64,000 nt of DNA. It comes from Luminiphilus syltensis NOR5-1B. Lineage in GTDB: Bacteria; Pseudomonadota; Gammaproteobacteria; Pseudomonadales; Halieaceae. Position 1 is the stretch's first letter; every line of letters starts with the position of its first letter. This document shows, piece by piece, positions 4,788 through 38,527 of the stretch. The stretch lies in assembly GCF_000158175.1 (NCBI RefSeq), contig NZ_DS999411.1:2865674-2929673 (forward strand), read 5' to 3'. The notes under the pieces are model-generated. The model did no database searches. It worked only from the letters and a program-made list of their open reading frames with translations, and was not told where the DNA came from. A program made the translations under genes and the position numbers.

Positions 4788-6122
4788 ATGCGCGACCACC
4801 AAATCTTTGATCCGGATATCGAGACGCGTCCGATTGATCAGCAGTTCCAGCTCGACAGGGACGCCTACAGGAAACAGATCCGGTACCTGATGGAGAACTC
4901 CGAGTTCTATCAGGAGAAGCTGGCGAATGCCGGATTCGACACGCCGGAAAAGATCGGTGAGCTCGATGATATTTCAGCGCTGCCCTTTACCGAAAAGGAT
5001 GAGATTCGCTCCAGCCAGGCGAACCACCCGCCATTTGGCAATCACGTTGCCGCCGATCCGGACAGTCTGGTTCGGGTGTTCAGCACCAGCGGAACCACCG
5101 GCACGCCCTGCTATCTCGGCCTGACCCGCGGCGATCTGGATATGTACGCCACCAACGTGGCACGAGGCTATAGCGCCGCCGGCTTCAAGAAAGGACAGCG
5201 CCTGGTGGTCGGCTTCAACGCCGGTCCCTTCGTCGCCGGGGCCGTTTACTACGGCTTTGACAAGATTGGATGCAATGTCATACCCGTGGGCACCGGTAAT
5301 ACCGAGCGTATGGTCACCGCGATTCAAAAGCTTGGCGCCACAGGCGTGAGCTGTACACCCTCTTATGGCCTGTATCTGATCGACTGGTGCCGTGACCACG
5401 GTATCGACACCCAGTCACTGGGCTTGCAGAACATGATTACCGCGGGCGAGCCCGGCGGCGGTGATCCTCTGGTCCGGCGAACCATCACCGAGGCCTTCGG
5501 CTGCACACTCCGGGAATCAATGGGTATTGGTGATATCTCCCTGTCGGTCTGGGCCGAAGATGCCGCCGAAGATGGTATGAACTTCATGGCCCGGGGTTTC
5601 GTTCATGTCGAATTGATTGACCCTGCCTCGGGCAACCCTATCGCATGGGAAGACGGCGCTGAGGGTGAATTGGTCTACACGGCGCTGCAACGGGAATCGA
5701 TGCCGATGCTTCGCTTCCGTAGTCGCGATCACGTCGTGGTGAATATGCAGGACAATCCGACCGGAAGGACGGGACCGAGGATTCGCTGTGTCGGACGCAC
5801 CGATGACATGCTCATTGTGCGCGGCGTCAACCTGTTCCCAACCGCAGTTCGAAGTGTTCTGGAGTCTTTCGAGAATGAAGTATCGGGTATCTTCAGTATT
5901 CGGCCGAAAACCCATGGCGTATTGCAGACACCACCATTGCCGCTGCTGGTCGAGGTAGCCCACGGTACGGCGACAGACAATGCCGAACTCACAAAGAAAA
6001 TCAAAGACGAGATCAAAGCGCGACTGCTGGTCACCAGCGACGTTCGTCTCGTAGAACACGGGTCTCTGCCTCGAGAAACCTACAAGACCAAGCTGGTCGA
6101 CTATTCAGAGGCCGCCGCCTGA
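4788..6122 (+). CDS. Phenylacetate-CoA ligase-like adenylate-forming enzyme
   Basis: 444 residues, close in size to PaaK. Seen: the P-loop STSGTTGTPCYLG near residue 100, an adenine-binding region TAGEPGGG, and RTDDMLIVRGVNLFP in the C-terminal part, a classic PaaK-type signature. It would activate a carboxylic acid with ATP to an acyl-adenylate and then the CoA thioester. The start is the ATG at 4788, one base after the flavodoxin stop (TAGCATG). A longer frame upstream overlaps the flavodoxin and is unlikely. It is the last gene of the operon and is followed by a strong hairpin. The acid is probably aromatic, but this is not proven. Confidence 0.88.
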   Translation: MRDHQIFDPDIETRPIDQQFQLDRDAYRKQIRYLMENSEFYQEKLANAGFDTPEKIGELDDISALPFTEKDEIRSSQANHPPFGNHVAADPDSLVRVFSTSGTTGTPCYLGLTRGDLDMYATNVARGYSAAGFKKGQRLVVGFNAGPFVAGAVYYGFDKIGCNVIPVGTGNTERMVTAIQKLGATGVSCTPSYGLYLIDWCRDHGIDTQSLGLQNMITAGEPGGGDPLVRRTITEAFGCTLRESMGIGDISLSVWAEDAAEDGMNFMARGFVHVELIDPASGNPIAWEDGAEGELVYTALQRESMPMLRFRSRDHVVVNMQDNPTGRTGPRIRCVGRTDDMLIVRGVNLFPTAVRSVLESFENEVSGIFSIRPKTHGVLQTPPLPLLVEVAHGTATDNAELTKKIKDEIKARLLVTSDVRLVEHGSLPRETYKTKLVDYSEAAA

Positions 6123-6150
6123 TAGCACTGGGAGGCGCCAAACCCATCAA

Positions 6151-6170
6151 GGGGAGGAGCTGTCCTCCCC
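6151..6170. terminator. Strong hairpin between convergent genes
   Basis: A perfect 8-bp stem, GGGGAGGA-gctg-TCCTCCCC, sits between the CoA ligase and the convergent outer-membrane gene. There is only a weak T-run on either side, so it may act as a bidirectional terminator or RNA end stabiliser. Confidence 0.6.
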
Positions 6171-6222
6171 CGCTTTCAGCTTGTCTGAGAGCTTTATAGT
6201 CGCACCGAAAGATGCATGGCAT

Positions 6223-7053
6223 CTATCGCGGGTACACGAACACCACGTTCAATCGTACGCCCCAGCCCTCCGGTCTTTGATCGGGAGACTCGGCCCGGTA
6301 GCGGACACCCGCCCCCAACTGCATGAGTTGGTCGCCGAACTTGAGTAGCTGGCTGACCTGCAGATTAATGGGCACCGACCAGGCCGTATTCTCCCAGTTA
6401 TAGGTGGATTCGAGGTTCATACTGAATGTGGTCTTTGTCGGCGTTATATAGGACACGAAAGGCTGCAGAAACGTCGCACTGATATCGCCGCGGTCGTCGT
6501 CGCCGACAAACGACTCAATATGATTGACCAGCCCGCCAAAGGTCCAGGGACCAGACTGTTTGAGCGCAACGGCGGTCGGTCCGACACCCCACTGCTCGGC
6601 ACCAAGGAACTCATCTGTGGCCGTCGGCAGGAGAAAAGCCGGCCCAGCGCCCCAGGTCCAGCCACCCGCGGTAGGCTTACTCGGTGAGAAAAACAGGCTT
6701 TGCGTCACATCACCCAATCCGAACTCGCTATAGCCGACAAAGGGCGTGTCCTGCTGATCGATAATGGGCAGGATAGTGCGGGAAATAACATTCCAATCCT
6801 CGTTCAGGGAGAACGGGATCACCGGCTGAACATTGGTGCGAAACACTGAGCCCTTGTCGTCGATACCAAAATTGTCATCGTAGTTGGCCTGGATCGGCAC
6901 ACTGATCAGCGACGCAATTGGATTCGCCAATTGCGCCGCGATGTCGGTCTGCCCCCCCTCTTGTGAACTGGCGAACGCGGGTAATGCCAAGGCGATGGTC
7001 GGCAGCACACGCCTCAGTCGGGGTACGCTGTTATTGAACGGCATCAATGTCAC
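6223..7053 (-). CDS. Putative outer-membrane 'transporter' (phenol MetA-pathway type)
   Basis: 276 residues with an N-terminal signal peptide ending near FASSQ, then alternating polar/hydrophobic strands typical of a beta-barrel. It closes with VVFVYPR. Phrases such as NVQPVIPFSLNEDW and FSPSKPTAGGWTWG are those of proteins usually annotated as 'transporter' or MetA-pathway-of-phenol-degradation outer-membrane proteins. The start could be GTG at 7053 or ATG at 7044. It may admit hydrophobic substrates, but function is unproven. It is convergent with the CoA ligase operon. Confidence 0.7.
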   Translation of the reverse strand: MTLMPFNNSVPRLRRVLPTIALALPAFASSQEGGQTDIAAQLANPIASLISVPIQANYDDNFGIDDKGSVFRTNVQPVIPFSLNEDWNVISRTILPIIDQQDTPFVGYSEFGLGDVTQSLFFSPSKPTAGGWTWGAGPAFLLPTATDEFLGAEQWGVGPTAVALKQSGPWTFGGLVNHIESFVGDDDRGDISATFLQPFVSYITPTKTTFSMNLESTYNWENTAWSVPINLQVSQLLKFGDQLMQLGAGVRYRAESPDQRPEGWGVRLNVVFVYPR

Positions 7054-7313
7054 GGGTTCCTTTCTCGAACGGTTGTGTTTCTATCATTGTAGTGATCCTA
7101 ACCTAACTCAACGGCTGGGCTATGCGTCTTTTGGGTGCAAATAAGGTGCACATTGGGGTGCAGCCTACGCATTGGCCCTTTTTAACACGCCAAAAAACAC
7201 CGACCGATGACCTTAAATCACTGTGCATCGAGCGCGGACTGCACAATCGGAGAAACTGGTGATCACGACTGACCATGGGAAGCCGGCACGCTTATGCCGG
7301 GATTAAACGCGTA

Positions 7314-8333
7314 TCACTCGGGAAACCAGTGCCGAGTCCGGTTCGCAAACGCGACCAGCGAGAGCATCACGGGCACTTCAACCAGAACGCCGACGACAGT
7401 GGCCAGAGCCGCACCCGACTGAAGTCCAAACAGGGAGATGGCGACAGCGACGGCCAGTTCGAAGAAGTTTGACGTTCCAATCATGCAGGCGGGCGCGGCG
7501 ATGCTGTGCGGCAGTTTCAGCGAACGTGCTGCGGAGTAAGCAATAGCGAAGATACCGTAGGTCTGAATGAGCAAGGGTATCGCGATGAGCACGATTGCCA
7601 GCGGCTGACCGAGAATGGTCTCAGCCTGAAAGCCAAACAACAGGACTACCGTCATCAGCAGCCCGGCGATCGAGATCGGTTTTAGTTTGGCAAGAAAGCG
7701 GTCAAGCCGCCCGTGGTCGTCATTTGAATCCAGCACCCGTCGGGTAAAGTAACCCCCCAGCAGCGGCAGCAGCACGTAAAGCACGACCGACAGCAGCAAG
7801 GTCTCCCAGGGTACAGTGACATCGCTCACGCCGAGCAGAAAGGCGGCAATGGGCGCGAACGCGAAGATCATGATGATATCGTTCACTGAAACCTGTACCA
7901 GCGTGTAGTTAGCATCCCCTTTTGTCAGCTGGCTCCATACAAAGACCATCGCCGTACAGGGCGCCACACCGAGCAAAATCATCCCGGCGATGTATTCGCC
8001 AGCGGTGACTGGATCCACCCAATCGACGAACAGCACTCTGAAGAACAACCAGCCCAAAGCCGCCATGGTGAAAGGCTTAACCAGCCAGTTGATGGCCAGC
8101 GTCAATGCGAGTCCGCGCGGACGCTTACCAACATCCCTGATCGAAGAGAAATCAACCTGCACCATCATGGGGTAGATCATTAACCAGATCAGTACCGCGA
8201 CAGGCAGATTGACCTGCGCATATTCCAGTGCCGCAAATGTCTGGAAAATCGCGGGAAACAAGCTACCCAGTGAAACACCGGCAACGATGCAAAGCCCTAC
8301 CCACACGCTGAGATAACGTTCGAATAATCCCAT
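7314..8333 (-). CDS. acr3: ACR3-family arsenite efflux permease
   Basis: 339 residues with about ten membrane segments. The ACR3 signature [19 protein letters not shown] is present, including the conserved transmembrane Cys needed for As(III) transport in characterised members. The N-terminus ([14 protein letters not shown]) and the motif [11 protein letters not shown] also match the family. It extrudes As(OH)3 using the proton gradient. No arsR, arsC or arsH is adjacent, so it stands alone here; the arsenate reductase, if any, is elsewhere. Confidence 0.93.
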
Positions 8334-20560: not shown

Positions 20561-20633
20561 GAATGTCCGTTTTGGGTCGTAAGCGGACATCTGCTAAAGC
20601 CACTTAGTATGTCCGCTATCGGCCAGGAGCGGA
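20561..20633. repeat. Palindromic repeat, copy 4
   Basis: The core at 20574-20625 is GGGTCGTAAGCGGACAT...ATGTCCGCTATCGGCCA. An extra 5' arm GAATGTCCG makes a second small hairpin. It differs at two of 52 positions from the copy at 33629. Confidence 0.85.
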
Positions 20634-20804
20634 CTTGCACTTCGTCATTTGCCTTTAGTGTCGCACGTGACAACTTCTAGGTGTGCTTGCCAGCAGGAGG
20701 AACCCGTGAACCTCTCAAACCCGAATTGCTAAAAACGGGCTTTTACGGGGCGACTAGATCGCGTTGCTCCCGGCTCTACCTTGCGAAATTTGGCTCCGCC
20801 TGAT

Positions 20805-21726: not shown

Positions 21727-21778
21727 GGGTCGGTAGCGGACATTGGCCCATTGGCCTGCGAGCGTCCGCTGTCGGCCA
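21727..21778. repeat. Palindromic repeat, copy 5
   Basis: 52-bp unit GGGTCGGTAGCGGACATT...GTCCGCTGTCGGCCA of the GCCTGCGAGC subfamily, between the 80-aa gene and the next secreted gene. Confidence 0.85.
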
Positions 21779-21801
21779 GAAGCGGTCATGGCATTTTAAT
21801 T

Positions 21802-22502: not shown

Positions 22503-22595
22503 TTATCGGCAGTCCGGCTGTCATAGGGCATGCGCCCGTTAGACCCGTGACTTTGCGTTGCCCGCCTTTCAGCGGGGTTGCCTTTAAGCAGCAAT
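22503..22595 (-). ncRNA. Class I cyclic-di-GMP riboswitch (GEMM-I), no. 1
   Basis: On the minus strand: AAAGGCAACCCCGC, then a GAAA loop, GGCGGGCAACGCAAAGTCAC, GGGTCTAACGG and an AGCCGGACTGCC 3' arm. These match the GEMM-I order of conserved segments (GGCAA-CC, GAAA tetraloop, ACGCAAAG, C-GG-CTA, GCCGG-TGCC). It sits about 90 bases upstream of the secreted-protein gene at 22416. Confidence 0.85.
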
Positions 22596-22803: not shown

Positions 22804-23574
22804 TCAATACCACAGGCGAAACCCGGCAACGATCGAAAAACCCCTGGCCTTGCCGTCTTGCCGTTGCACCATGTCGGCAGTGTCACCGAAATCACCGCCC
22901 CAGCTAACCCCAATGTACGGAGCAAACTCGCGACGAAATTCGTAGCGCAGCCGAAGCTCGGCTACCGTATCAAATAGGCCTTTACCAATCCCAGCTTCCT
23001 CGTCAGCGGATGCTGCAAGATTGATTTCCAGGCGGGGCTGCAGAATCAAACGCTGGGTCAAAGAAAGCTCGTATTCTGTCTCAATACGAGCGGTCACTTT
23101 GCCTTCGTCACTTAGGAATAGCGCGGCATCAACCTCGAACCAATACGGCGCGAGTCCCTGAGTGCCGATCACCAAATGGCTTCGACGGGGAGTGGGCTCA
23201 AAGTCATGCCGTATACCTGCCTGCACATCCCAGAAGGCGCTGACTGCGCGGCTGTAGAGCAATTGTAGTTCGGCTTCATCGATTTCTTCGCCGTCGACAT
23301 ATTCGCCTTCTGTCTTCACCCAGAATTTGTTGCGGTCAGTACCCAACCATCCTTGACCTTCCCAGACAACAGCATCTCCAGTGTCATTGGTGCTGTACTC
23401 GAGACGCTCCGCAATAATCAGACTGTTGACCTGATTGCCATGTCCTTCCTGCAATTTCGAGCGCGCAGTGGCCATGGCCTGCGCGTCATAAAAGGCATCG
23501 GCCGCATTCTGGGCATCAGCCCCGACAGCAAACAGGACGAGCCCAATGGTTGGCAGCGTCGGGATGCGGCTCAT
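22804..23574 (-). CDS. copB: Copper resistance outer-membrane protein CopB
   Basis: 256 residues. A short signal peptide (LPTIGLVLFAVGADAQ) is followed by a beta-barrel domain typical of CopB/PcoB: LLYSRAVSAFWDVQAGIRHD and LQPRLEINLAA, ending in FRLWY with terminal aromatic residues. The His/Met-rich N-terminal extension of longer CopB proteins is missing. Its ATG overlaps the copA stop by four bases (ATGA), so the two are co-translated. It is thought to help move or bind copper at the outer membrane with CopA. Confidence 0.88.
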   Translation of the reverse strand: MSRIPTLPTIGLVLFAVGADAQNAADAFYDAQAMATARSKLQEGHGNQVNSLIIAERLEYSTNDTGDAVVWEGQGWLGTDRNKFWVKTEGEYVDGEEIDEAELQLLYSRAVSAFWDVQAGIRHDFEPTPRRSHLVIGTQGLAPYWFEVDAALFLSDEGKVTARIETEYELSLTQRLILQPRLEINLAASADEEAGIGKGLFDTVAELRLRYEFRREFAPYIGVSWGGDFGDTADMVQRQDGKARGFSIVAGFRLWY

Positions 23575-25406
23575 ACTGGAACAAGCTCATCGACTACGGA
23601 GACAACGCGCATCATGCCCGCGTGCATGTGGTAAAGCAGATGACAATGGAATGCCCAATCTCCCACCGCATCGGCCGTGATGTCGACGGACATCTTCTCG
23701 CCGGGTTTTACAACGATGGTGTGTTTTCGGGGCTTGAATTCACTGTCGTTCGTTACGACTTCAAAGAACATGCCATGCAGGTGTATCGGGTGCGGCATCA
23801 TGGTGTCGTTGACCAGGGTCAGCCGAACCCGTTCACCCTTGTAAAACTTGATAGGCTCGTCCACCTCTGAAAACTTCACCCCGTCAAAGGACCACATATA
23901 GCGCTCCATATTGCTAGTGAGATGGAGCTCCAACTCACGCCCGGGCATGCGCACATCGGGGTTGCAGTCTCGTGCTCGCAGGTCCGTGTACACCAGCACC
24001 CGGTGATCCTCGTCCTGTAGGCCCAGGGGGCGTTCATGCAGACGATTGACCGGATTCGCGGCCAGCCCTACGACACCAGGGCCTTTGACGTGATCGTGCG
24101 CTTGTGGTGCGGCGGCTCTACCGTGGTTTGATACAGGGTTCATTGCCGCGTGATCCATTGTCCCATTCCCCATCAAATCATGGTTCATTGCGCCGTGATC
24201 CATCTTCCCGTGCCCCATCGCGGCGTGGTCAACCGGACCACCATCCATGCTCTCATGACCCGCGTCGCTGCTACCCATGCTGCCATGATCCATTGCCATA
24301 TCTTTCATGGTGAGGGTCGGCCGAGACCGCAATTCCGGGACGGGGGCAACCATGCCCTCCCTCGGCGCGAGGGTCGCGCGGGCGTATCCATACCGGTCAT
24401 TACTCTCCGCCATCAGTGTGTAGGCCCGGTCGTCGGGTTTCACTATGACGTCAAAGGTCTCGGCGACACCAATTTGAAACTCGTCTGTCTCAACGGGAAC
24501 AACCGGTAATCCGTCCGCCTGTACAACACTGAGTGGCAGCCCGGGGATTCGCACATTGAAAATGCTCATCGCCGAAGCATTGATGAACCGCAACCGCACC
24601 CGCTCTCCTGGCTTGAAAAGACCCGTCCAGTTGTCTTTTGGACCATGACCGTTAATCAGGTACGTGTAGGTTGCGCCAGTGACATCAGCAATATCCGTCG
24701 GGTTCATGCGCTTATCTCCCCACATGAGCCGGTCGTCAACGGCACTCGCGAGGCCATCCTCGCGGCTATCGCGGAAAAACTCTTGCACCGTGCGCTGCTG
24801 AAAATTGTAGTTGTCCGGCATCTTCTTCAGCTTCGCAAAAACGCGATGGGGGTCCTCAAAGGTCCAGTCCGACAGCAGGATCACATATTCGCGTTCAACA
24901 GAATCCGGATCGGCTTCCCGGGGCTCAATGATCAATGGCCCGTAGTGTCCACTCTGCTCCTGCAGCCCGGAGTGGCTGTGATACCAGTAGGTGCCTGCTT
25001 GTTGCAGGGGAAATTCGTAAACGAAGGTTTCGCCGGGGCTGATACCCGGGAAGCTCACGCCCGGAACTCCATCCATCTGAAAAGGTAACAATATGCCGTG
25101 CCAGTGAATCGACGTATCCACCTCGAGCCTGTTGGTGACCCGCAGGGTGACCGTATCACCCTCGCGCCAGCGTAACAGGGGTGCCGGCAACTGTTCATTT
25201 ACCAGAACACCGTGCCCACGGCGCCCGTCGATGATAGAGGATGCTGCAGCGACGCTGAGATCAAAGACCTTACCCGCTAACGGCCGCATTCCCGTTAGAT
25301 TTGACGCTGTTCCACTGCGCGCCCAGGGTGGCAGCGCCAAATTCAGGCCGACGCCGGCCACGGCAAAGGTCCCCTGCTGAAGAAATTTCCGACGCGTGAA
25401 ATTCAT
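23571..25406 (-). CDS. copA: Multicopper oxidase CopA (copper resistance)
   Basis: 611 residues. A twin-arginine signal (TRRKFLQQG) leads to three cupredoxin domains. Copper ligand motifs are in order: HWHG and WYHSHS near the N-terminus, and HPIHLHG and HCHLLYHMHAGM at the C-terminus. Between them lies a Met/His-rich insert of repeated MDHGSM, MDHAAM and MNHDLM units, as in CopA/PcoA, which binds extra Cu(I). It oxidises and detoxifies periplasmic copper. The start is the ATG at 25406, which gives the Tat signal. It is first in copAB and divergent from the csoR-like repressor across a GC-rich operator. Confidence 0.94.
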   Translation of the reverse strand: MNFTRRKFLQQGTFAVAGVGLNLALPPWARSGTASNLTGMRPLAGKVFDLSVAAASSIIDGRRGHGVLVNEQLPAPLLRWREGDTVTLRVTNRLEVDTSIHWHGILLPFQMDGVPGVSFPGISPGETFVYEFPLQQAGTYWYHSHSGLQEQSGHYGPLIIEPREADPDSVEREYVILLSDWTFEDPHRVFAKLKKMPDNYNFQQRTVQEFFRDSREDGLASAVDDRLMWGDKRMNPTDIADVTGATYTYLINGHGPKDNWTGLFKPGERVRLRFINASAMSIFNVRIPGLPLSVVQADGLPVVPVETDEFQIGVAETFDVIVKPDDRAYTLMAESNDRYGYARATLAPREGMVAPVPELRSRPTLTMKDMAMDHGSMGSSDAGHESMDGGPVDHAAMGHGKMDHGAMNHDLMGNGTMDHAAMNPVSNHGRAAAPQAHDHVKGPGVVGLAANPVNRLHERPLGLQDEDHRVLVYTDLRARDCNPDVRMPGRELELHLTSNMERYMWSFDGVKFSEVDEPIKFYKGERVRLTLVNDTMMPHPIHLHGMFFEVVTNDSEFKPRKHTIVVKPGEKMSVDITADAVGDWAFHCHLLYHMHAGMMRVVSVVDELVPV

Positions 25407-25437
25407 GTGATTCCTATCGAGCATTACCGTACACTTA

Positions 25438-25456
25438 ATACTCCCGGGGGGTATAC
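25438..25456. promoter_or_regulatory. CsoR-type operator between copA and csoR
   Basis: ATACTCCCGGGGGGTATAC: an AT-flanked G/C tract with near dyad symmetry, the form recognised by CsoR/RcnR-family repressors. It lies in the 64-base gap of the divergent promoter, so one repressor can control both directions. Confidence 0.72.
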
Positions 25457-25470
25457 GTCAAGGAGTAGGG

Positions 25471-25743
25471 ATGGATCAGCAACGCGATGGGACGCTCAGG
25501 CGACTGGCCCGCATCGAGGGCCAGGTCCGGGGAGTCATAGGGATGATCGAGTCAGACCGCTATTGTATTGACGTGCTTCAACAACTGCGGGCTATCCAGT
25601 CGGCACTTGCAAAAGTACAGGATGCTGTGCTGAAGGACCACGCCGCTACCTGCGTGGAGCGGGCTATTTCTTCCGGCGATCCCATCGATCAACGCCAAAA
25701 ATTCGATGAGCTCATCGATATCATTTCAAAGACAAGAAACTAG
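25471..25743 (+). CDS. csoR: CsoR/DUF156-family copper-sensing repressor
   Basis: 90 residues, all-helical metal-sensing repressor. Seen: RLARIEGQVRGVIGMIE, a Cys in DRYCIDVLQQL, and H plus C in KDHAATCVE, matching the Cys-His-Cys Cu(I) site of CsoR. Apo-protein would bind the operator at 25438-25456 and release on Cu(I). AAGGAG lies upstream of the ATG. Other members of the family sense nickel or formaldehyde; the adjacent copAB supports copper here. Confidence 0.88.
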   Translation: MDQQRDGTLRRLARIEGQVRGVIGMIESDRYCIDVLQQLRAIQSALAKVQDAVLKDHAATCVERAISSGDPIDQRQKFDELIDIISKTRN

Positions 25744-25759
25744 TTTATTGATTGCGGTT

Positions 25760-26045
25760 TAGATCATTGCCCGCCGCCAGAAACGGTCAATGCGGGTAGG
25801 CGCAGTTAGGATCGCGCCCACCAGCGCAAAATCGCTGCTAAAAGACTGACTGAATCGGCGGGGGGATATTGAACGATTTGTCTTGAAACAAACTAATGGT
25901 GGCGTTGACCACGACATTACATCCCAGGCAACATCTCCTGCACCCCGACCCTGGGCCAAACCCCGCCACAGTCGTAAGTACGCCCCGGGATACGCCGACC
26001 TTTGCGGGTCGGCTTTTTTTGCTCATAAAGTTGGGACAGCGTAGT
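25760..26045 (-). pseudogene. Relic of a reverse-transcriptase 3' end
   Basis: Positions 25951-26043 align with 28281-28374, the C-terminal part of the intact reverse transcriptase, at clear DNA identity. Read on the minus strand it gives QLYEQKK and, after a one-base loss in a T-run, YLRLWRG, matching RT residues near 280-305. Beyond 25950 the frame continues open but similarity fades. The rest of the gene is absent, cut at repeat copy 7. Confidence 0.72.
25994..26020 (+). terminator. Rho-independent terminator
   Basis: GCCGACC-tttgcg-GGTCGGC followed by seven T. It would end plus-strand transcripts from csoR. The same hairpin (28324-28343, tail TTTCTTTT) recurs inside the 3' end of the intact RT gene, where it would face the DUF1554 gene. 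Confidence 0.85.
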
Positions 26046-26060
26046 TAGCGCGTCGCCTTC

Positions 26061-26112
26061 GGGTCGTTAGCGGACATTGGCTCAGAGGCCTGCGAGCGTC
26101 CGCTATCGGCCA
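26061..26112. repeat. Palindromic repeat, copy 7
   Basis: GGGTCGTTAGCGGACATTGG...GTCCGCTATCGGCCA, 52 bp, the best match to the consensus, between the RT relic and the DUF1554 gene. Confidence 0.88.
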
Positions 26113-26268
26113 CAACCTGCCAGAGACTGAACGGCAAACTCACGACCCCGCTCAACCTCACGAGATAACCAAAGGCACCATCGGTCCGTGACTCTTGCAG
26201 ACGCGTTCTTTTACTGGAATGCTTGTCACTCCTCAATTTTCCGACACCTATTTCCTCAGGGAGTGCCC

Positions 26269-28158
26269 ATGTCTGTCTTCAGGCACGTATTAGCTTGGCT
26301 CGCAGTCACCCTACCCGTGTCAGCTATAGCTCAAACCACGGGCACCCTGACCTACGGGCCGTCGGCTGGGGCTGGAGGCAGTGGCGCGACCCCTGCAGAG
26401 CCTGTTCCGATTCCCTCCCTGTTCCTGTTGCCGCTGGCCGTTGCATTGGCGTTCTTCGGCTACCGGGCGCTGCGTAAGCAAGGTGGCAGGCAACTGCTGG
26501 GCGCGGTGCTGCTCGCCTCGGGCGTGAGCCTTGGCGGTATCAGCAGCCTGCACATACAGGACGCCATTGCGCAGATGATGATTGAGCTGAACCAGCCGAA
26601 CGGCGGCACGGTGGATATTCCTGTCTCGGATGCCATCTACACCAACACCTCGGGTGTGGCCCTGCAGATCGGAACGGTAACGGCACCGCCATCCTGCGCG
26701 ACCAGCGCACCTGCTGACGAGTGTGTTACGGACCTGACCCTTGAAAACGGTGAAAGCTGCAGCACGGTATATGACTGCACTCAAACCATCAGCTTCACAT
26801 CTACAGCCCCCACCGACGCCACCGCCGGTGGTGCCACTTACGCTGTGACAGCCGCTGCGACATCTGGCTTGGCGGTAACCTTCAGCACCACCAGCGCGGC
26901 CTGTTCTGTCAGTGACTCTACAGTGACCTTTGAGGCTGCTGGGGACTGCGTCATCAACGCCGATCAGGCGGGAGATGCGGACTACGACCCCGCACCGCAA
27001 GCTATGCAGACGGTGAGTGTTGGTAAGCAGGCGCAAACCATCAGCTTTACCTCGACGGCCCCCACCGACGCCACCTCCGGTGGTGGTACCTATGACGTGG
27101 CCGCCACAGCGACGTCTGGTCTGGACGTTACGTTCAGCACTACCAGCGCCGCCTGTTCTGTCAGCGGCTCCACTGTCACATTCGACGCTGTGGGTGACTG
27201 CGTCATCAACGCTGATCAGGCGGGGGATACGGACTTCTCTGCGGCCCCACAGATACAGCAATCATTCAGTGTTGCCTCGCCCGTGGTGACAGTCACGAAG
27301 ACGGCAGATGGGGCTGAGGGCATGACGCCCACGAATGCGTCCTTTACGGTGTCGCGGACGGGCGATACCACCAACCCTCTGATGGTGACCTATACATTGG
27401 CAGGAACCGCAACCGGAGTTGCTGTAGTGGCCACTCCCGATGATTTGTCTGATGATGAAGACTACACGGTAGCCAGTCTGACCCAGATTGAAATTCCCGC
27501 CGCATCGGCCACTGTTGACCTGCCGATTATTGTGTTAGGCGACGACGTCTACGATCCGAGTGAGACCGTGATTGTGACGGTGTCCGCTGGCGCTGCTTAT
27601 ACCGTCGGGACCGAGGATTCAGCGGAGGCAGCGATCACGGCTCCTGACAAGCGCCTCTTTGTGACTGCCGCTACTTTCACAGGCGATCTGCGGCCCGCTG
27701 GGGACACGGCGTCCACGAGTGGCATCGCGGGCGCGGATGCGAAGTGTGAGGCAGATGCAAACAAGCCCAACGATGGTAGTACCTACAAGGCGATGCTGGC
27801 GGGCGGGGGAAGGTCGGCAGCGCCAACCTCGACCGACTGGGTTCTGGCGGCCGACACGAAGTATTTCAGGCCGGACGCCGCGGGCACATTCATCGCTGGC
27901 ACAAATGGCAATGCGGTATTTGCTTTCCCGTTGTCGGCAGGCATTACCGCAACACCAGATCGGGATGTCTTCACGGCGCTTGATGCCGATTGGTCCAAGA
28001 GTGGGCTAGATTGCGAGGGGTGGACAACTCAGTTTCTCTTTCCAGTGAACGTTGGGCGTTCGAGCCTGCGAAACTCATTCGCCATAGACTCACCCGCGCC
28101 GGGTTCATCATTACCGTTTTGCGGTGCTCCTAACAGCCTGTATTGCGCCGAGCAGTGA
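26269..28158 (+). CDS. Surface protein: midcut-type sorting motif, repeats, Calx-beta, DUF1554
   Basis: 629 residues. A signal peptide ends at AIAQ (22). Residues 45-68 form PVPIPSLFLLPLAVALAFFG with RALRKQ after it: an IPTL/XrtH-like motif placed near the N-terminus, as in midcut-by-XrtH proteins, followed by a second hydrophobic segment. Next come two about 80-residue tandem repeats starting QTISFTSTAPTDAT, a Calx-beta domain (about 345-460) and a C-terminal DUF1554 domain from about 461 (RLFVTAATFTGDL... SLYCAEQ), a lectin-like fold with four Cys. The ATG at 26269 has GGGAG upstream. It ends 24 bases from the convergent reverse transcriptase. Probably displayed on the surface; ligand unknown. 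Confidence 0.8.
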   Translation: MSVFRHVLAWLAVTLPVSAIAQTTGTLTYGPSAGAGGSGATPAEPVPIPSLFLLPLAVALAFFGYRALRKQGGRQLLGAVLLASGVSLGGISSLHIQDAIAQMMIELNQPNGGTVDIPVSDAIYTNTSGVALQIGTVTAPPSCATSAPADECVTDLTLENGESCSTVYDCTQTISFTSTAPTDATAGGATYAVTAAATSGLAVTFSTTSAACSVSDSTVTFEAAGDCVINADQAGDADYDPAPQAMQTVSVGKQAQTISFTSTAPTDATSGGGTYDVAATATSGLDVTFSTTSAACSVSGSTVTFDAVGDCVINADQAGDTDFSAAPQIQQSFSVASPVVTVTKTADGAEGMTPTNASFTVSRTGDTTNPLMVTYTLAGTATGVAVVATPDDLSDDEDYTVASLTQIEIPAASATVDLPIIVLGDDVYDPSETVIVTVSAGAAYTVGTEDSAEAAITAPDKRLFVTAATFTGDLRPAGDTASTSGIAGADAKCEADANKPNDGSTYKAMLAGGGRSAAPTSTDWVLAADTKYFRPDAAGTFIAGTNGNAVFAFPLSAGITATPDRDVFTALDADWSKSGLDCEGWTTQFLFPVNVGRSSLRNSFAIDSPAPGSSLPFCGAPNSLYCAEQ

Positions 28159-28181
28159 TGCCCACATTCCGATACGGTAAC

Positions 28182-29201
28182 TTACGCGATAGACCTGCGG
28201 TTGTTCCATAGGAGCCCCTTTTTCGGCTCGCAGGACCTAGCACGCACCGCTAAATCCACCGATATTTCACACAGCCCACCCCTGGCCCAGCCTCGCCACC
28301 GTCGTAAGTACGCCCCAAGATAGGCCGACCTTTGCGGGTCGGCTTTCTTTTGCTCATAAAGCCGGGACAACGTACTTCGCATGTTGTCGAGGGTTTTGCG
28401 CGCCAATTGCAGTCTGTTGCGGCTAAATCGGTAACCGAGGAAATCGAATCCTCGGGCGATGTAGCCAATGCTCGTTTTGTCCGGATGCTTGGACAGCTTC
28501 AGCCGCCCCAGCACGCCATTGAGCACGGCGATGGCCCGTCGCAGTTGCCAGCGTGTTCGTGCCATCACCAAAATGTCGTCCATGTAGCGGACATAGAAGA
28601 CGTCGCGTGGCTCCAATGCGGCATCCAGCTCTTGCAGGTAAACCGCACCGAACAGTGGACTGAGTGGCGACCCGCGCCCAATGCCCCGGCGAATATCCCG
28701 GTAAAGCCCGCCATGCTCGACTGTACGGCCGATGAACTGGGACAGCAGGTTCAGGGTCCAGCGGTCATTGATATGGGCGGACAGTTGGGTCAGCAAAAGG
28801 GATTGGTCAATCGACTCGTAATACGCCTTGACGTCGGTGCGAATAACGAAGCGGAACCAGGTGCTGTTGCGCTCTACGGCGCGTACGGCGCCCTTCAGAC
28901 CGCCGTTTCCTTTGATGTGCGTGCAGCGCTTCGAAATACCAAGATGTGGCCTAATAGCCAGCGCCAGTGCTTTGGCTACCAGTGCGTCAGCGGCGCTCCA
29001 CAGGTGAATCACGGTGCCGTCGGCCCTGTGGATGCATTGCAGGGGAGAGACGCGATAACTGCTCTGGCGCAGCGCGTCCAGTATGCGCTCACGCTCGCTT
29101 TGCCAGTGAAATCGCAGGTGCCAGATGTCCGCATTATCTGGATAGTGCTGGCGCCGGTGGCAGAGCCAGAGGTAAGCGGTGTCGATGTGCTGCGCTTCCA
29201 T
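28182..29201 (-). CDS. Stand-alone reverse transcriptase
   Basis: 339 residues. RT motifs in order: RTDVKAYYESID (about 121-132, first catalytic Asp), RGSPLSPLFGA (176-186), YVRYMDDILV with the YMDD box (206-209), HPDKT (239-243) and FDFLGYRF (252-259), then a basic thumb region. There is no maturase or HNH domain, so it is not a complete group II intron protein. Motif 4 reads S-P-L-S-P rather than the S-Q of classical diversity-generating retroelements. It belongs to a proteobacterial group opening with WLCHRRQHYPDNADIWHLRFHW. It is convergent with the DUF1554 gene. Function unknown. Confidence 0.88.
   Translation of the reverse strand: MEAQHIDTAYLWLCHRRQHYPDNADIWHLRFHWQSERERILDALRQSSYRVSPLQCIHRADGTVIHLWSAADALVAKALALAIRPHLGISKRCTHIKGNGGLKGAVRAVERNSTWFRFVIRTDVKAYYESIDQSLLLTQLSAHINDRWTLNLLSQFIGRTVEHGGLYRDIRRGIGRGSPLSPLFGAVYLQELDAALEPRDVFYVRYMDDILVMARTRWQLRRAIAVLNGVLGRLKLSKHPDKTSIGYIARGFDFLGYRFSRNRLQLARKTLDNMRSTLSRLYEQKKADPQRSAYLGAYLRRWRGWARGGLCEISVDLAVRARSCEPKKGLLWNNRRSIA
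28281..28374. repeat. 94-bp direct repeat of the RT 3' end
   Basis: Same-orientation partner of 25951-26043; the pair brackets the DUF1554 gene and repeat copy 7. It includes the GCCGACC/GGTCGGC hairpin. Confidence 0.8.
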
Positions 29202-29278
29202 CGTTGTGTGAGCTTAGACGGAGGGACGCTGTTAGGCGATAGCCGACCTTCAGTAACGTCTAGCTGATCGTCTCGGTT

Positions 29279-29330
29279 GGGTCGAAAGCGGTCACTCGTC
29301 TGAAGCACCCATAATGTCCGCTATCGGCCA
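29279..29330. repeat. Palindromic repeat, copy 8
   Basis: GGGTCGAAAGCGGTCACT...TGTCCGCTATCGGCCA, 52 bp, upstream of the RT gene. The rest of 29202-29581 holds no gene I can support. Confidence 0.8.
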
Positions 29331-29581
29331 AGAGCGGAAGTGCGAGGCTTTACAAGTGGGCGACGGCTGTCACCTCGAAGCGGTCACGCGTATGGGCTAG
29401 GATCGCATATTCTTTGCTGCTGTAATCTGCCAAATGCCGCTGTTGGGAAGCCATAGATTTTCGCCTTGTGTCTGGCTAGTCTGTTGGACCGCGCTATGAA
29501 TTTAGGTGGCACGCGAAGTTGCATCAATAGCATTTTGAGAACACACTATTCTAATAACTGTAATTTAATTCAGGGTGGCTC

Positions 29582-30098: not shown

Positions 30099-30192
30099 CG
30101 AAAGCGGTCATCAATCGCGACCGCTTTGAGCGCCTCAGATGGGTCGTTAACGGACATCCGCTAGAGACGCACTGGACGGCTGCTATCGGCCA
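30099..30192. repeat. Palindromic repeat, copy 9, with extra hairpin
   Basis: A hairpin AAAGCGGTC...GACCGCTTT (30101-30127) precedes the 52-bp unit at 30141-30192. The unit differs at one position from the copy at 30795, and the two bracket a single gene. Confidence 0.82.
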
Positions 30193-30217
30193 TAAGCGAG
30201 CATCGCTTCACGGCGGT

Positions 30218-30794: not shown

Positions 30795-30846
30795 GGGTCG
30801 TTAGCGGACATCCGCTAGAGACGCACTGGACGGCTGCTATCGGCCA
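30795..30846. repeat. Palindromic repeat, copy 10
   Basis: GGGTCGTTAGCGGACATCC...GGCTGCTATCGGCCA, 52 bp, near-identical partner of 30141-30192. Confidence 0.85.
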
Positions 30847-30967
30847 GGAGCGTAATGATTGAAAAAGCCGATCAGTCTTCCCACTTATGGCTACTTTCGA
30901 CTGATTTGATGTCCAACTTGTTATTAGTTACGCTCCTCTGACGTAGCGAATTCCCAAGTCGGGTGGG

Positions 30968-33439: not shown

Positions 33440-33530
33440 TATGCGTTGCAATCCCGCGACCTTGGAGGCTTGCTCGGTAGGCCGGAAACTTTGCGTCCCC
33501 ACCTTTCGATGGGTTTGCCCTTGTGCATGA
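33440..33530 (-). ncRNA. Class I cyclic-di-GMP riboswitch (GEMM-I), no. 2
   Basis: Minus strand: CACAAGGGCAAACCCATC, GAAA, GGTGGGGACGCAAAGTTTCC, GGCCTACC, and 3' arm GCGGGATTGCAACGCAT, which pairs with the 5' ATGC. It matches all conserved GEMM-I segments. It lies about 180 bases upstream of the Hcp-like gene. Confidence 0.9.
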
Positions 33531-33628
33531 AGAGTAGCTCCCCCACACCCAAAATACAAGGAAACACGAATGTCCCTCTAGCACACGAGAATTCAATAGC
33601 GACAAATTAGCTGGCACTGGTTCGCAAT

Positions 33629-33680
33629 GGGTCGAAAGCAGACATCTGCTAAAGCCACTTAGTATGTCCGCTATCGGCCA
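33629..33680. repeat. Palindromic repeat, copy 12
   Basis: GGGTCGAAAGCAGACATC...ATGTCCGCTATCGGCCA, 52 bp, differing at two positions from the core at 20574-20625, 13 kb away. Confidence 0.85.
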
Positions 33681-33779
33681 GTAGCCGACTCAGTCGTTCT
33701 TCTTTCGCCCCCTGTTGTGGCTTGCCGCCGTTTCCGTCTTTCGCGAGAGCTACTCACGTAAAGTGGCGGCCGGGTCGTG

Positions 33780-35297: not shown

Positions 35298-36158
35298 TCA
35301 GTTAACCATTACACCATCCTTCCAGGTAACTTCCGATTTCTTCTGGCCGTCCTCGTACCAGGAGGTCACCAGCCCATGTCGCTCACCATCCTTGTAGGTG
35401 CCTTCCGATTTCTTCTGGCCGTTCTCATGCCAGTAGGTGTGCAGACCTTCTTCCTTGCCATCCTTGTAGGTGCCTTCCGATTTCTTCTGGCCGTTCTCGT
35501 ACCAGGAGGTCACCAGCCCTTCTACCTTGCCATCCTTGTAGGTGCCTTCCGAATACTTCTGGCCGTTCTCATGCCAGTAGGTGTGCAGACCTTCTTCCTT
35601 GCCATCCTTGAAGGTGCCTTCCGATTTCTTCTGGCCGTTCTCGTACCAGGTGGTGTACGGCCCTTCTCGCTTGCCATCCTTGGCAGTGCCTTCCGACTCT
35701 TTCTGGCCATTCTCGTACCAGGTGGTGGATGGCCCTTCTAGCTTGCCATCCTTCCAGGTGTCCTCCAATTTCTTCTGGCCATTCTCGTACCAGGTGGTGG
35801 ATGGACCTTCTGGCTTGCCATCCTTCCAGGTGTCCTCCAATTTCTTCTGGCCGTTCTCATGCCAGAAGATCACCAGCCCCTCAGGCTTGTTATCCTTCCA
35901 GGTGCCTTCCTCCTTTTTCTGGCCATTCTCGTACCAGGTGGTGGACGGCCCTTCTGGCTTGCCATCCTTGTAGGTGACTTCCTCCTGTTTCTGGCCGTTC
36001 TCGTACCAGATTACAGCGCGGCCGCTAAACGGTTCAGTCTCGTTGGGCAGGTAAAACAGGGAATTTCTCTCTTGCAGCTTGTCGGCGTCCACGACAGTCT
36101 CGGAGCAAGCGGATACCGTGAGGATCACCAGTGCCAGAAAAAAAGATGCCTGCCTCAT
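35298..36158 (-). CDS. MORN-type repeat lipoprotein (YwqK family)
   Basis: 286 residues. A lipoprotein signal ends LTVSAC with the Cys at about 18. From about residue 48 the protein is ten units of 24 residues with consensus YENGQKKSEGTYKDGKxEG, the MORN_2/YwqK type annotated as toxin-antitoxin YwqK-family antitoxin, although no toxin is adjacent. The 72-bp DNA units are highly similar, giving long antisense frames on the plus strand that are not genes. Expected to be tethered to the outer membrane with the repeat beta-sheet exposed to the periplasm or surface. Ligand unknown. Confidence 0.85.
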   Translation of the reverse strand: MRQASFFLALVILTVSACSETVVDADKLQERNSLFYLPNETEPFSGRAVIWYENGQKQEEVTYKDGKPEGPSTTWYENGQKKEEGTWKDNKPEGLVIFWHENGQKKLEDTWKDGKPEGPSTTWYENGQKKLEDTWKDGKLEGPSTTWYENGQKESEGTAKDGKREGPYTTWYENGQKKSEGTFKDGKEEGLHTYWHENGQKYSEGTYKDGKVEGLVTSWYENGQKKSEGTYKDGKEEGLHTYWHENGQKKSEGTYKDGERHGLVTSWYEDGQKKSEVTWKDGVMVN

Positions 36159-38437: not shown

Positions 38438-38527
38438 TTCCGGTAATCCCGCTGCCGTAGGTTTTGCCCTTAGGCCGGTAACTTTGCGCCACCACCTTTC
38501 GATGGTCATGCCCTTTTTGCTACGTGA
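38438..38527 (-). ncRNA. Class I cyclic-di-GMP riboswitch (GEMM-I), no. 3
   Basis: Minus strand: AAAAAGGGCATGACCATC, GAAA, GGTGGTGGCGCAAAGTTACC, GGCCTAAGG, AAACCTACGG, AGCGGGATTACCGG. All conserved GEMM-I parts are in order. It shares its central part almost exactly with no. 2. Confidence 0.9.

What the first reader, a model, noticed from the sequence alone, without database searches (positions are those of the whole stretch)
25951..29201. Reverse transcriptase paired with a sorted lectin-fold surface protein
Seen: an RT with all catalytic motifs lies 24 bases from, and convergent with, a 629-residue secreted protein that has an exosortase-type motif near its N-terminus, tandem repeats, Calx-beta and a C-terminal DUF1554 domain. 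Known: retroelements that diversify proteins act on lectin-like folds at a C-terminus. Inference: this could be an unrecognised RT-linked system acting on surface proteins. Against: RT motif 4 is SPLSP, not the SQ of classical diversity-generating retroelements, and I found no template copy of the DUF1554 end.
Basis: partly seen in the sequence, partly recalled or inferred. Interest (0 to 1): 0.82.

Follow-up and report, generated by a model that had tools for sequence, protein, structure and literature searches.

The report
Reverse transcriptase beside variable adhesin ends
A little-studied bacterial reverse transcriptase sits against one end of a surface protein, and that end differs strongly between otherwise near-identical copies, which hints at an unrecognised way for bacteria to vary what they stick to.

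Summary
The RT (28182-29201, -) belongs to the unassigned class UG4. Its neighbour (26269-28158, +, 629 aa) is a midcut-by-XrtH protein ending in DUF1554; a profile of RT-linked DUF1554-type domains matches endostatin. The genome holds a second unit: 740 bp at the surface gene's 5' end and 1008 bp of RT are identical in DNA, the stretch between differs strongly. In 38 of 53 non-redundant UG4 sites that I read, the RT 3' end lies against a gene for an extracellular protein (18 convergent, 20 codirectional; my tally). In 10 of 10 compared allele pairs the RT-proximal third of that protein is the less conserved one: C-terminal when convergent, N-terminal when codirectional. Two E. albertii plasmid stretches of 10.85 kb differ by 12 substitutions, all within 198 bp just after the RT, plus two single-base indels. 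No template copy was found in the one-contig genome and the RT is not of DGR type: not a classical DGR. Best reading: UG4 helps renew receptor-binding ends by segment replacement. RT causation is inferred; an RT-free control is missing. UG4's fimbrial association is in print.

The parts
28182..29201 (-). UG4-class reverse transcriptase, 339 aa, open frame with YMDD
   Evidence: RVT_1 E=1.6e-16; RT_UG4 E=2.7e-123, residues 2-310
26269..28158 (+). surface protein, 629 aa: midcut-by-XrtH N-terminal region, repeats, C-terminal DUF1554 domain
26098..26837 (+). constant 5' segment (upstream region plus first 189 codons), identical in DNA to the second unit
   Evidence: no difference over 740 nt
26838..28266 (+). 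variable segment: rest of the surface gene, gap and last ~28 RT codons; 77% to no reliable alignment against the second unit
28267..29274 (-). constant RT segment, identical in DNA to the second unit
   Evidence: no difference over 1008 nt
27706..28032 (+). DUF1554 domain
   Evidence: G000:C1:2893379-2893705, 84.9 bits
25945..26049 (-). remnant of an RT 3' end, 85% identical in DNA to 28275-28380; protein match to RT residues 283-315 with one stop
28324..28351 (+). hairpin (28324-28343) followed by a T-rich run, inside the RT gene on the opposite strand; possible terminator of the surface-gene transcript (not tested)
   Evidence: present in the remnant too
26061..26115 (.). REP-like element at one edge of the duplicated unit
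29279..29336 (.). REP-like element at the other edge of the duplicated unit

Best explanation
UG4 reverse transcriptases are partners of adhesins and other extracellular proteins and take part in renewing the receptor-binding segment that lies against their 3' end. Proposed steps: (1) a transcript that covers the RT 3' end and the adjacent segment is reverse transcribed [inferred]; (2) the cDNA, copied from another allele or with errors, recombines into the resident gene through the constant flanks, RT on one side and the rest of the surface gene on the other [inferred]; (3) this leaves constant-variable-constant loci [shown in several lineages]. In the window the replaced stretch is the DUF1554 end of the midcut-by-XrtH protein. 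Shown: the linkage, its position and strand logic, and where the variation lies. Inferred: that the RT causes it, the template, the recombination step, and that the partner's variable end binds a receptor.
For: Two units in one genome: 740 + 1008 nt identical, middle different. Constant-variable-constant in Budvicia invasin-like genes, Salmonella inverse autotransporters, three of the four G025 partners (the fourth, L088, shares no N-terminus with them), and E. marmotae and E. albertii fimbrial tip genes. RT-proximal third less conserved in 10 of 10 compared pairs, in both orientations. L072/L073: 12 substitutions in 198 bp right after the RT, no other substitution in 10.85 kb; 8 of 12 at codon positions 1-2. 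Partner domains: profile of six RT-linked DUF1554-type domains hits endostatin E=5e-7, and three of three G025 partners scanned show weak Pfam Endostatin matches; Budvicia hits invasin E=7e-17; codirectional partners carry MrpH_C or Fimbrial domains at the RT-distal end (L080 just below, L182 and L051 above cut-off). Partner at the RT 3' end in 38 of 53 non-redundant sites (my tally).
Against: No experiment. No template or donor copy found in the window's genome or on the 42.5-kb E. albertii plasmid. Receptor domains vary by selection and recombination without any RT; no RT-free control was run. The one hypermutated pair could be a conversion patch, and its adenine share (8 of 12) is not significant. 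L070/L071 show 1 of 5 substitutions in the adhesin, no clear concentration. L054/L086 and L082/L087 are identical and say nothing. Synonymous divergence at the RT 3' end is low but no lower than elsewhere in the RT. L054 has a fimbrial partner in convergent orientation, against the strand rule. In L002, L008 and L097 the RT abuts a PEP-CTERM sorting signal, not a lectin-like domain. 15 of 53 sites lack a clear extracellular partner in my tally, though three of them (L001, L092, L096) have signal-like N-termini. Orientation and partner type are confounded: nearly all of the 17-row codirectional clade is fimbrial.
Confidence: 0.45

Rival explanations
1. Ordinary adhesin evolution: receptor-binding domains diversify by selection, horizontal import and homologous recombination; the RT is only a conserved neighbour with another role.
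For: The window pair's variable part carries 67 synonymous against 101 nonsynonymous codon changes, as expected of an imported older allele; boundaries differ between pairs; other patches of divergence occur in the same plasmids, for example L075 2400-2800 and beyond 7800.
Against: Does not explain why the RT's 3' end is placed against the variable end in both orientations and with unrelated partner families, nor the 12-in-198-bp cluster.
Confidence: 0.32
2. UG4 is an antiphage or regulatory RT kept beside phage-accessible surface proteins; variation is a separate consequence of phage pressure.
For: PADLOC lists the RT_UG4 model under the description DRT.
Against: By my reading no toxin or effector gene is constantly linked; the constant neighbour is an extracellular protein.
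Confidence: 0.12
3. The RT is a mobile or homing element that targets ends of surface-protein genes and drags neighbouring sequence along.
For: RT genes 91-94% identical in different surroundings in E. coli (L052, L067, L068); RT remnants keep the 3' end in G025 and in the window.
Against: Position in fimbrial operons is stable over long RT divergence; an Rfam gathering search of the window found only c-di-GMP riboswitches, no group II intron RNA. Target-site duplications were not sought.
Confidence: 0.08
4. Classical diversity-generating retroelement with a template repeat.
For: A lectin-like C-terminal domain beside an RT.
Against: No template copy in the one-contig genome; SPLSP instead of SQ; full-length RT_UG4 match; indels and synonymous changes in the variable part.
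Confidence: 0.03

Closest known systems
UG4 class of bacterial reverse transcriptases (PMC8934634; PMC4244168)
   Same: The RT belongs to it; Table 4 of PMC8934634 gives a fimbrial domain near 66% of UG4 RTs (passage seen)
   Different: The passages seen say nothing of intimin/invasin, DUF1554 or PEP-CTERM partners, of position at the RT 3' end, or of variability
Diversity-generating retroelements (Bordetella phage BPP-1, Legionella; recalled)
   Same: RT beside a lectin-like surface end that varies
   Different: No template repeat found, no DGR-type RT motif, no accessory gene noticed (no profile search for it), variation includes indels and synonymous changes
midcut-by-XrtH proteins (NCBIfam NF033207)
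   Same: N-terminal region of the partner belongs to it; XrtH present
   Different: 3 of 5 NF033207 matches in this genome are not beside a UG4 RT
Intimin/invasin inverse autotransporters and two-domain fimbrial tip adhesins
   Same: Partners of UG4 RTs elsewhere are of these kinds
   Different: That their well-studied members lack an RT neighbour is recalled, not tested

Membership tests
UG4 reverse transcriptases | full-length match to the UG4 profile, better than to other RT classes | tested here: met
   409 bits, next model 134 bits
UG4 reverse transcriptases | fimbrial neighbours (frequent in print, 66%, not defining) | tested here: not met
   none among the nine neighbouring proteins scanned between 21802 and 32437
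Diversity-generating retroelement | template repeat nearly identical to the variable region | tested here: not met
   no such copy of 26840-28380 in the single contig
Diversity-generating retroelement | adenine-specific substitutions | tested here: inconclusive
   8 of 12 differences include A in one pair, not significant by my estimate; window pair has mixed changes
Diversity-generating retroelement | DGR-type RT with SQ motif (motif recalled) | tested here: not met
   GRGSPLSP, no SQ
Diversity-generating retroelement | variable C-type-lectin-like or Ig-like target domain | tested here: met
   profile of RT-linked DUF1554-type domains hits endostatin over its whole length; that this fold is C-type-lectin-like is recalled; no usable structure model
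Group II intron | intron RNA and full maturase | tested here: not met
   no group II RNA at gathering score; 115 bits against a cut-off of 300
midcut-by-XrtH protein | score above the NCBIfam cut-off | tested here: met
   75.9 against 45
Antiviral DRT system | protection against phage | not testable with these tools
   needs an experiment

The most novel reading that the evidence does not exclude
UG4 RTs are the engine of a template-repeat-free diversification system: the variable segment serves as its own template (or takes variants from other alleles), the RT's own 3' end marks where copying starts, and the same enzyme class serves fimbrial tips, intimin/invasin-like proteins, exosortase-sorted proteins and fibre-like proteins.
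Probability: 0.3. Interest if true: 0.93.

Novelty: new variant of a known kind. Interest (0 to 1): 0.78.

Why it matters
UG4 is a class of bacterial RTs for which I found no stated function. If it renews receptor-binding ends of surface proteins, it would be a second retroelement route, besides DGRs, by which bacteria vary adhesion, in fimbriae and invasin-like proteins as well as in environmental exosortase-sorted proteins, and it makes the function of the class directly testable.

Tried and rejected
Classical DGR: no template copy found. Silent cassettes in the same genome: only two DUF1554 matches, each beside an RT. Template on the E. albertii plasmid: none found. Phage origin: no match at E<=1e-20 in phage records; one UG4 relative in viral contigs (L180); the 80 loci are distant RTs (21-32% identity) and were not used; one search found nothing. 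Constrained cis element at the RT 3' end: synonymous divergence 0.11 and 0.16 per codon in codons 281-300 and 301-320 against 0.11-0.30 elsewhere, not decisive. Structure of the DUF1554 end from a single sequence: mean pLDDT 29.5, useless. Identical plasmid pairs gave nothing. A PDB search with the window domain alone gave no match. A control with RT-free adhesin operons was not run. Papers: searches; only PMC8934634 and PMC4244168 were opened and only passages were seen; all others were seen as listings. That the receptor-end link is not in print rests on these searches alone.

Full report
1. The observation. The RT (28182-29201, -) and the 629-aa protein (26269-28158, +) are real and convergent, 23 bases apart. 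The RT matches the UG4 profile at residues 2-310 (409 bits; next model 134 bits). The partner carries the midcut-by-XrtH region (75.9 bits against a cut-off of 45) and DUF1554 near its C-terminus. One XrtH gene lies at G000:C1:2506466-2506930. Calx-beta was not reported for the window protein at E<=0.01, but a sub-threshold match exists in its paralogue.

2. A second unit in the same genome. The genome is one contig of 3.26 Mb with two full-length UG4 RTs. The second unit (L017) has a 517-aa partner and an RT 98% identical over residues 1-323. Window 26098-26837 (740 nt) and 28267-29274 (1008 nt) are identical in DNA; between them identity falls to 77% and then to no reliable alignment. The partner proteins have 189 of 189 identical codons at the N-terminus and 19 of 84 identical aligned codons at residues 541-629. 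REP-like elements lie at both edges of the unit. Only two DUF1554 matches exist in the genome at E<=0.01, both beside UG4 RTs. A search with 26840-28380 found no further copy besides the second unit and RT 3'-end pieces. In a sample of 293 genomes of the order, 2 (this one and one other) have DUF1554 at E<=1e-8.

3. The variable part looks replaced, not hypermutated in place. Between the two units 67 codons differ synonymously and 101 nonsynonymously, with third positions changed most (129 of 271 changes). That is ordinary older divergence between identical flanks.

4. UG4 loci elsewhere. I read 57 RT sites: window and L017 (2); L001-L013 (14, two in L010); 28 from 25 of 44 plasmid records and 3 of 8 E. 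coli genome records; 11 in G025, G171, G253, G357, G404 and G056; L180; L182. Four near-duplicates (L071, L073, L086, L087) were dropped, leaving 53. In 38 a protein that I judge extracellular, by signal-like N-terminus, annotation or family match, ends or starts within about 270 bp of the RT 3' end or overlaps it: 18 convergent (window, L017, L002, L003, L008, two in L010, L050, L054, L065, L066, L088, L089, two in L090, L094, L097, L180) and 20 codirectional (L006, L049, L051-L053, L068-L070, L072, L074-L083, L182). In 15 I found none or could not tell (L001, L004, L005, L007, L009, L011-L013, L067, L084, L091-L093, L095, L096). Of these, L001, L092 and L096 do have adjacent genes with signal-like N-termini and were not moved into the count; L009, L012 and L013 are partial matches; L067 and L084 lie beside transposase genes; L004, L005, L007 and L011 group in the tree (with L091) and sit in another setting. 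Sources. Not fetched: 19 plasmid records, 5 E. coli records, 6 weaker genomes and 4 genomes. The judgement 'extracellular' is mine; no signal-peptide predictor was available.

5. What the partners are. Window and L017: DUF1554 above its cut-off. G025: related domains, one above the DUF1554 cut-off (L090:2674-3750), one just below (L089), two weaker (L088, L090:4820-5845), with weak Pfam Endostatin matches in three of three scanned. A profile of these six domains hits endostatin (1koe, E=5e-7, positions 1-143 of 144); the window domain alone hits nothing in the PDB. That endostatin has a C-type-lectin-like fold is recalled. Budvicia: invasin (1cwv, E=7e-17; PF21764 Invasin_D4). Salmonella: inverse autotransporters. 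Codirectional partners: mostly at the tip-gene position after usher and chaperone genes, with MrpH_C or Fimbrial domains at the RT-distal C-terminus in three (L182 and L051 above cut-off, L080 just under); of the other codirectional partners scanned (L006, L052, L068, L070, L072, L079, L081, L082) none had a Pfam match at E<=0.05. L094: collagen plus a sub-threshold Lcl_C match. L002, L008, L097: PEP-CTERM proteins, where the RT abuts the sorting signal. L180: a fibre-like protein on a viral contig.

6. Where the variation lies. In 10 of 10 compared pairs the RT-proximal third of the partner is less identical than the RT-distal third: window/L017 0.55 against 0.90; G025 0.22-0.33 against 0.82-0.93 (three pairs); Budvicia 0.17 against 0.94; Salmonella 0.23-0.25 against 0.63-0.77 (two pairs); E. 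marmotae 0.54 against 0.80; E. albertii 0.40 against 0.67 and 0.92 against 1.00. The variable end is the C-terminus in the seven convergent pairs and the N-terminus in the three codirectional pairs. The pairs were chosen because their flanks align, not blind; three come from one genome; identical or nearly identical pairs (L054/L086, L082/L087, L070/L071) were left out. At DNA level in L075/L076: 6 mismatches in 2300 nt up to the RT end, then 146 in 474 aligned positions plus gaps, then 49 in 400, and 3 in 600 at 7200-7799; divergence also occurs at 2400-2800 and after 7800. In L070/L074: 97.4% over 2.4 kb through the RT, then no DNA match for about 550 nt, then 76-97%.

7. A recent event. Stretches L072 and L073 (10,852 nt each) differ, apart from end effects of the alignment, by two single-base indels and 12 substitutions, all at 6091-6288, in the gene that starts 10 nt after the RT. 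Nine codons change, six with an amino-acid change; 8 of 12 changes are at positions 1-2. Eight differences include A and two include T; by my estimate from base composition the A share is not significant. No template or donor was found on the plasmid, and apart from this pair no plasmid record matched beyond the first 85 nt of the query, which is the RT end. L070/L071 do not show such a concentration (1 of 5).

8. Cis element. The three decayed RTs of G025 keep the RT 3' end (91-97% identical from about +20 to +265 or beyond after the partner's stop), as does the window remnant 25945-26049. The 3' end may be needed in cis, but chance deletion is not excluded, and synonymous divergence there is no lower than elsewhere in the Escherichia RTs.

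9. Reading. The linkage in both orientations, with unrelated partner families, over long RT divergence, together with localised variation, is best explained by an RT that helps to renew the segment at its 3' end. The causal role, template and strand are not shown. The main rival is ordinary diversifying evolution beside an RT with another role; an RT-free control is missing. Orientation and partner type are confounded: nearly all of the 17-row codirectional clade is fimbrial (L006 by my reading of its genes; the stretch of L077 shows no fimbrial gene).

10. Literature. The fimbrial association of UG4 (66%) is in print (PMC8934634, passages). Searches gave nothing on the receptor-end position, on DUF1554 beside an RT, or on variability. 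The library lacks most subscription papers and all bioRxiv preprints.

Noticed in passing
22505-22592, 33444-33529, 38439-38522 (-): Three c-di-GMP-I riboswitches in one window, the first two just upstream of genes for proteins with signal-like N-termini.
   Followed up: no
20573-20635, 21727-21781, 26061-26115, 29279-29336, 30141-30198, 30795-30852, 33628-33690 and others: Dispersed REP-like repeats of about 55-65 nt, also at the edges of the duplicated RT unit.
   Followed up: partly
35312-36009: Tandem array with a 72-nt period.
   Followed up: no
22804-25743: Copper resistance genes copB and copA and a RicR-like repressor beside the unit.
   Followed up: no
L065:1-2231: A second, partial UG4 RT sequence convergent with another inverse autotransporter gene on the same Salmonella plasmid.
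   Followed up: partly
L077:633-4466: Five hypothetical genes before the RT, two of them 942 and 891 bp long, possibly older tip genes.
   Followed up: no
L004, L005, L007, L011: A UG4 subclade (with L091) in another setting, in L005 and L007 after long proteins with acetyltransferase domains.
   Followed up: no
L180:4972-6939: UG4 RT fragment convergent with a fibre-like protein on a viral contig.
   Followed up: partly
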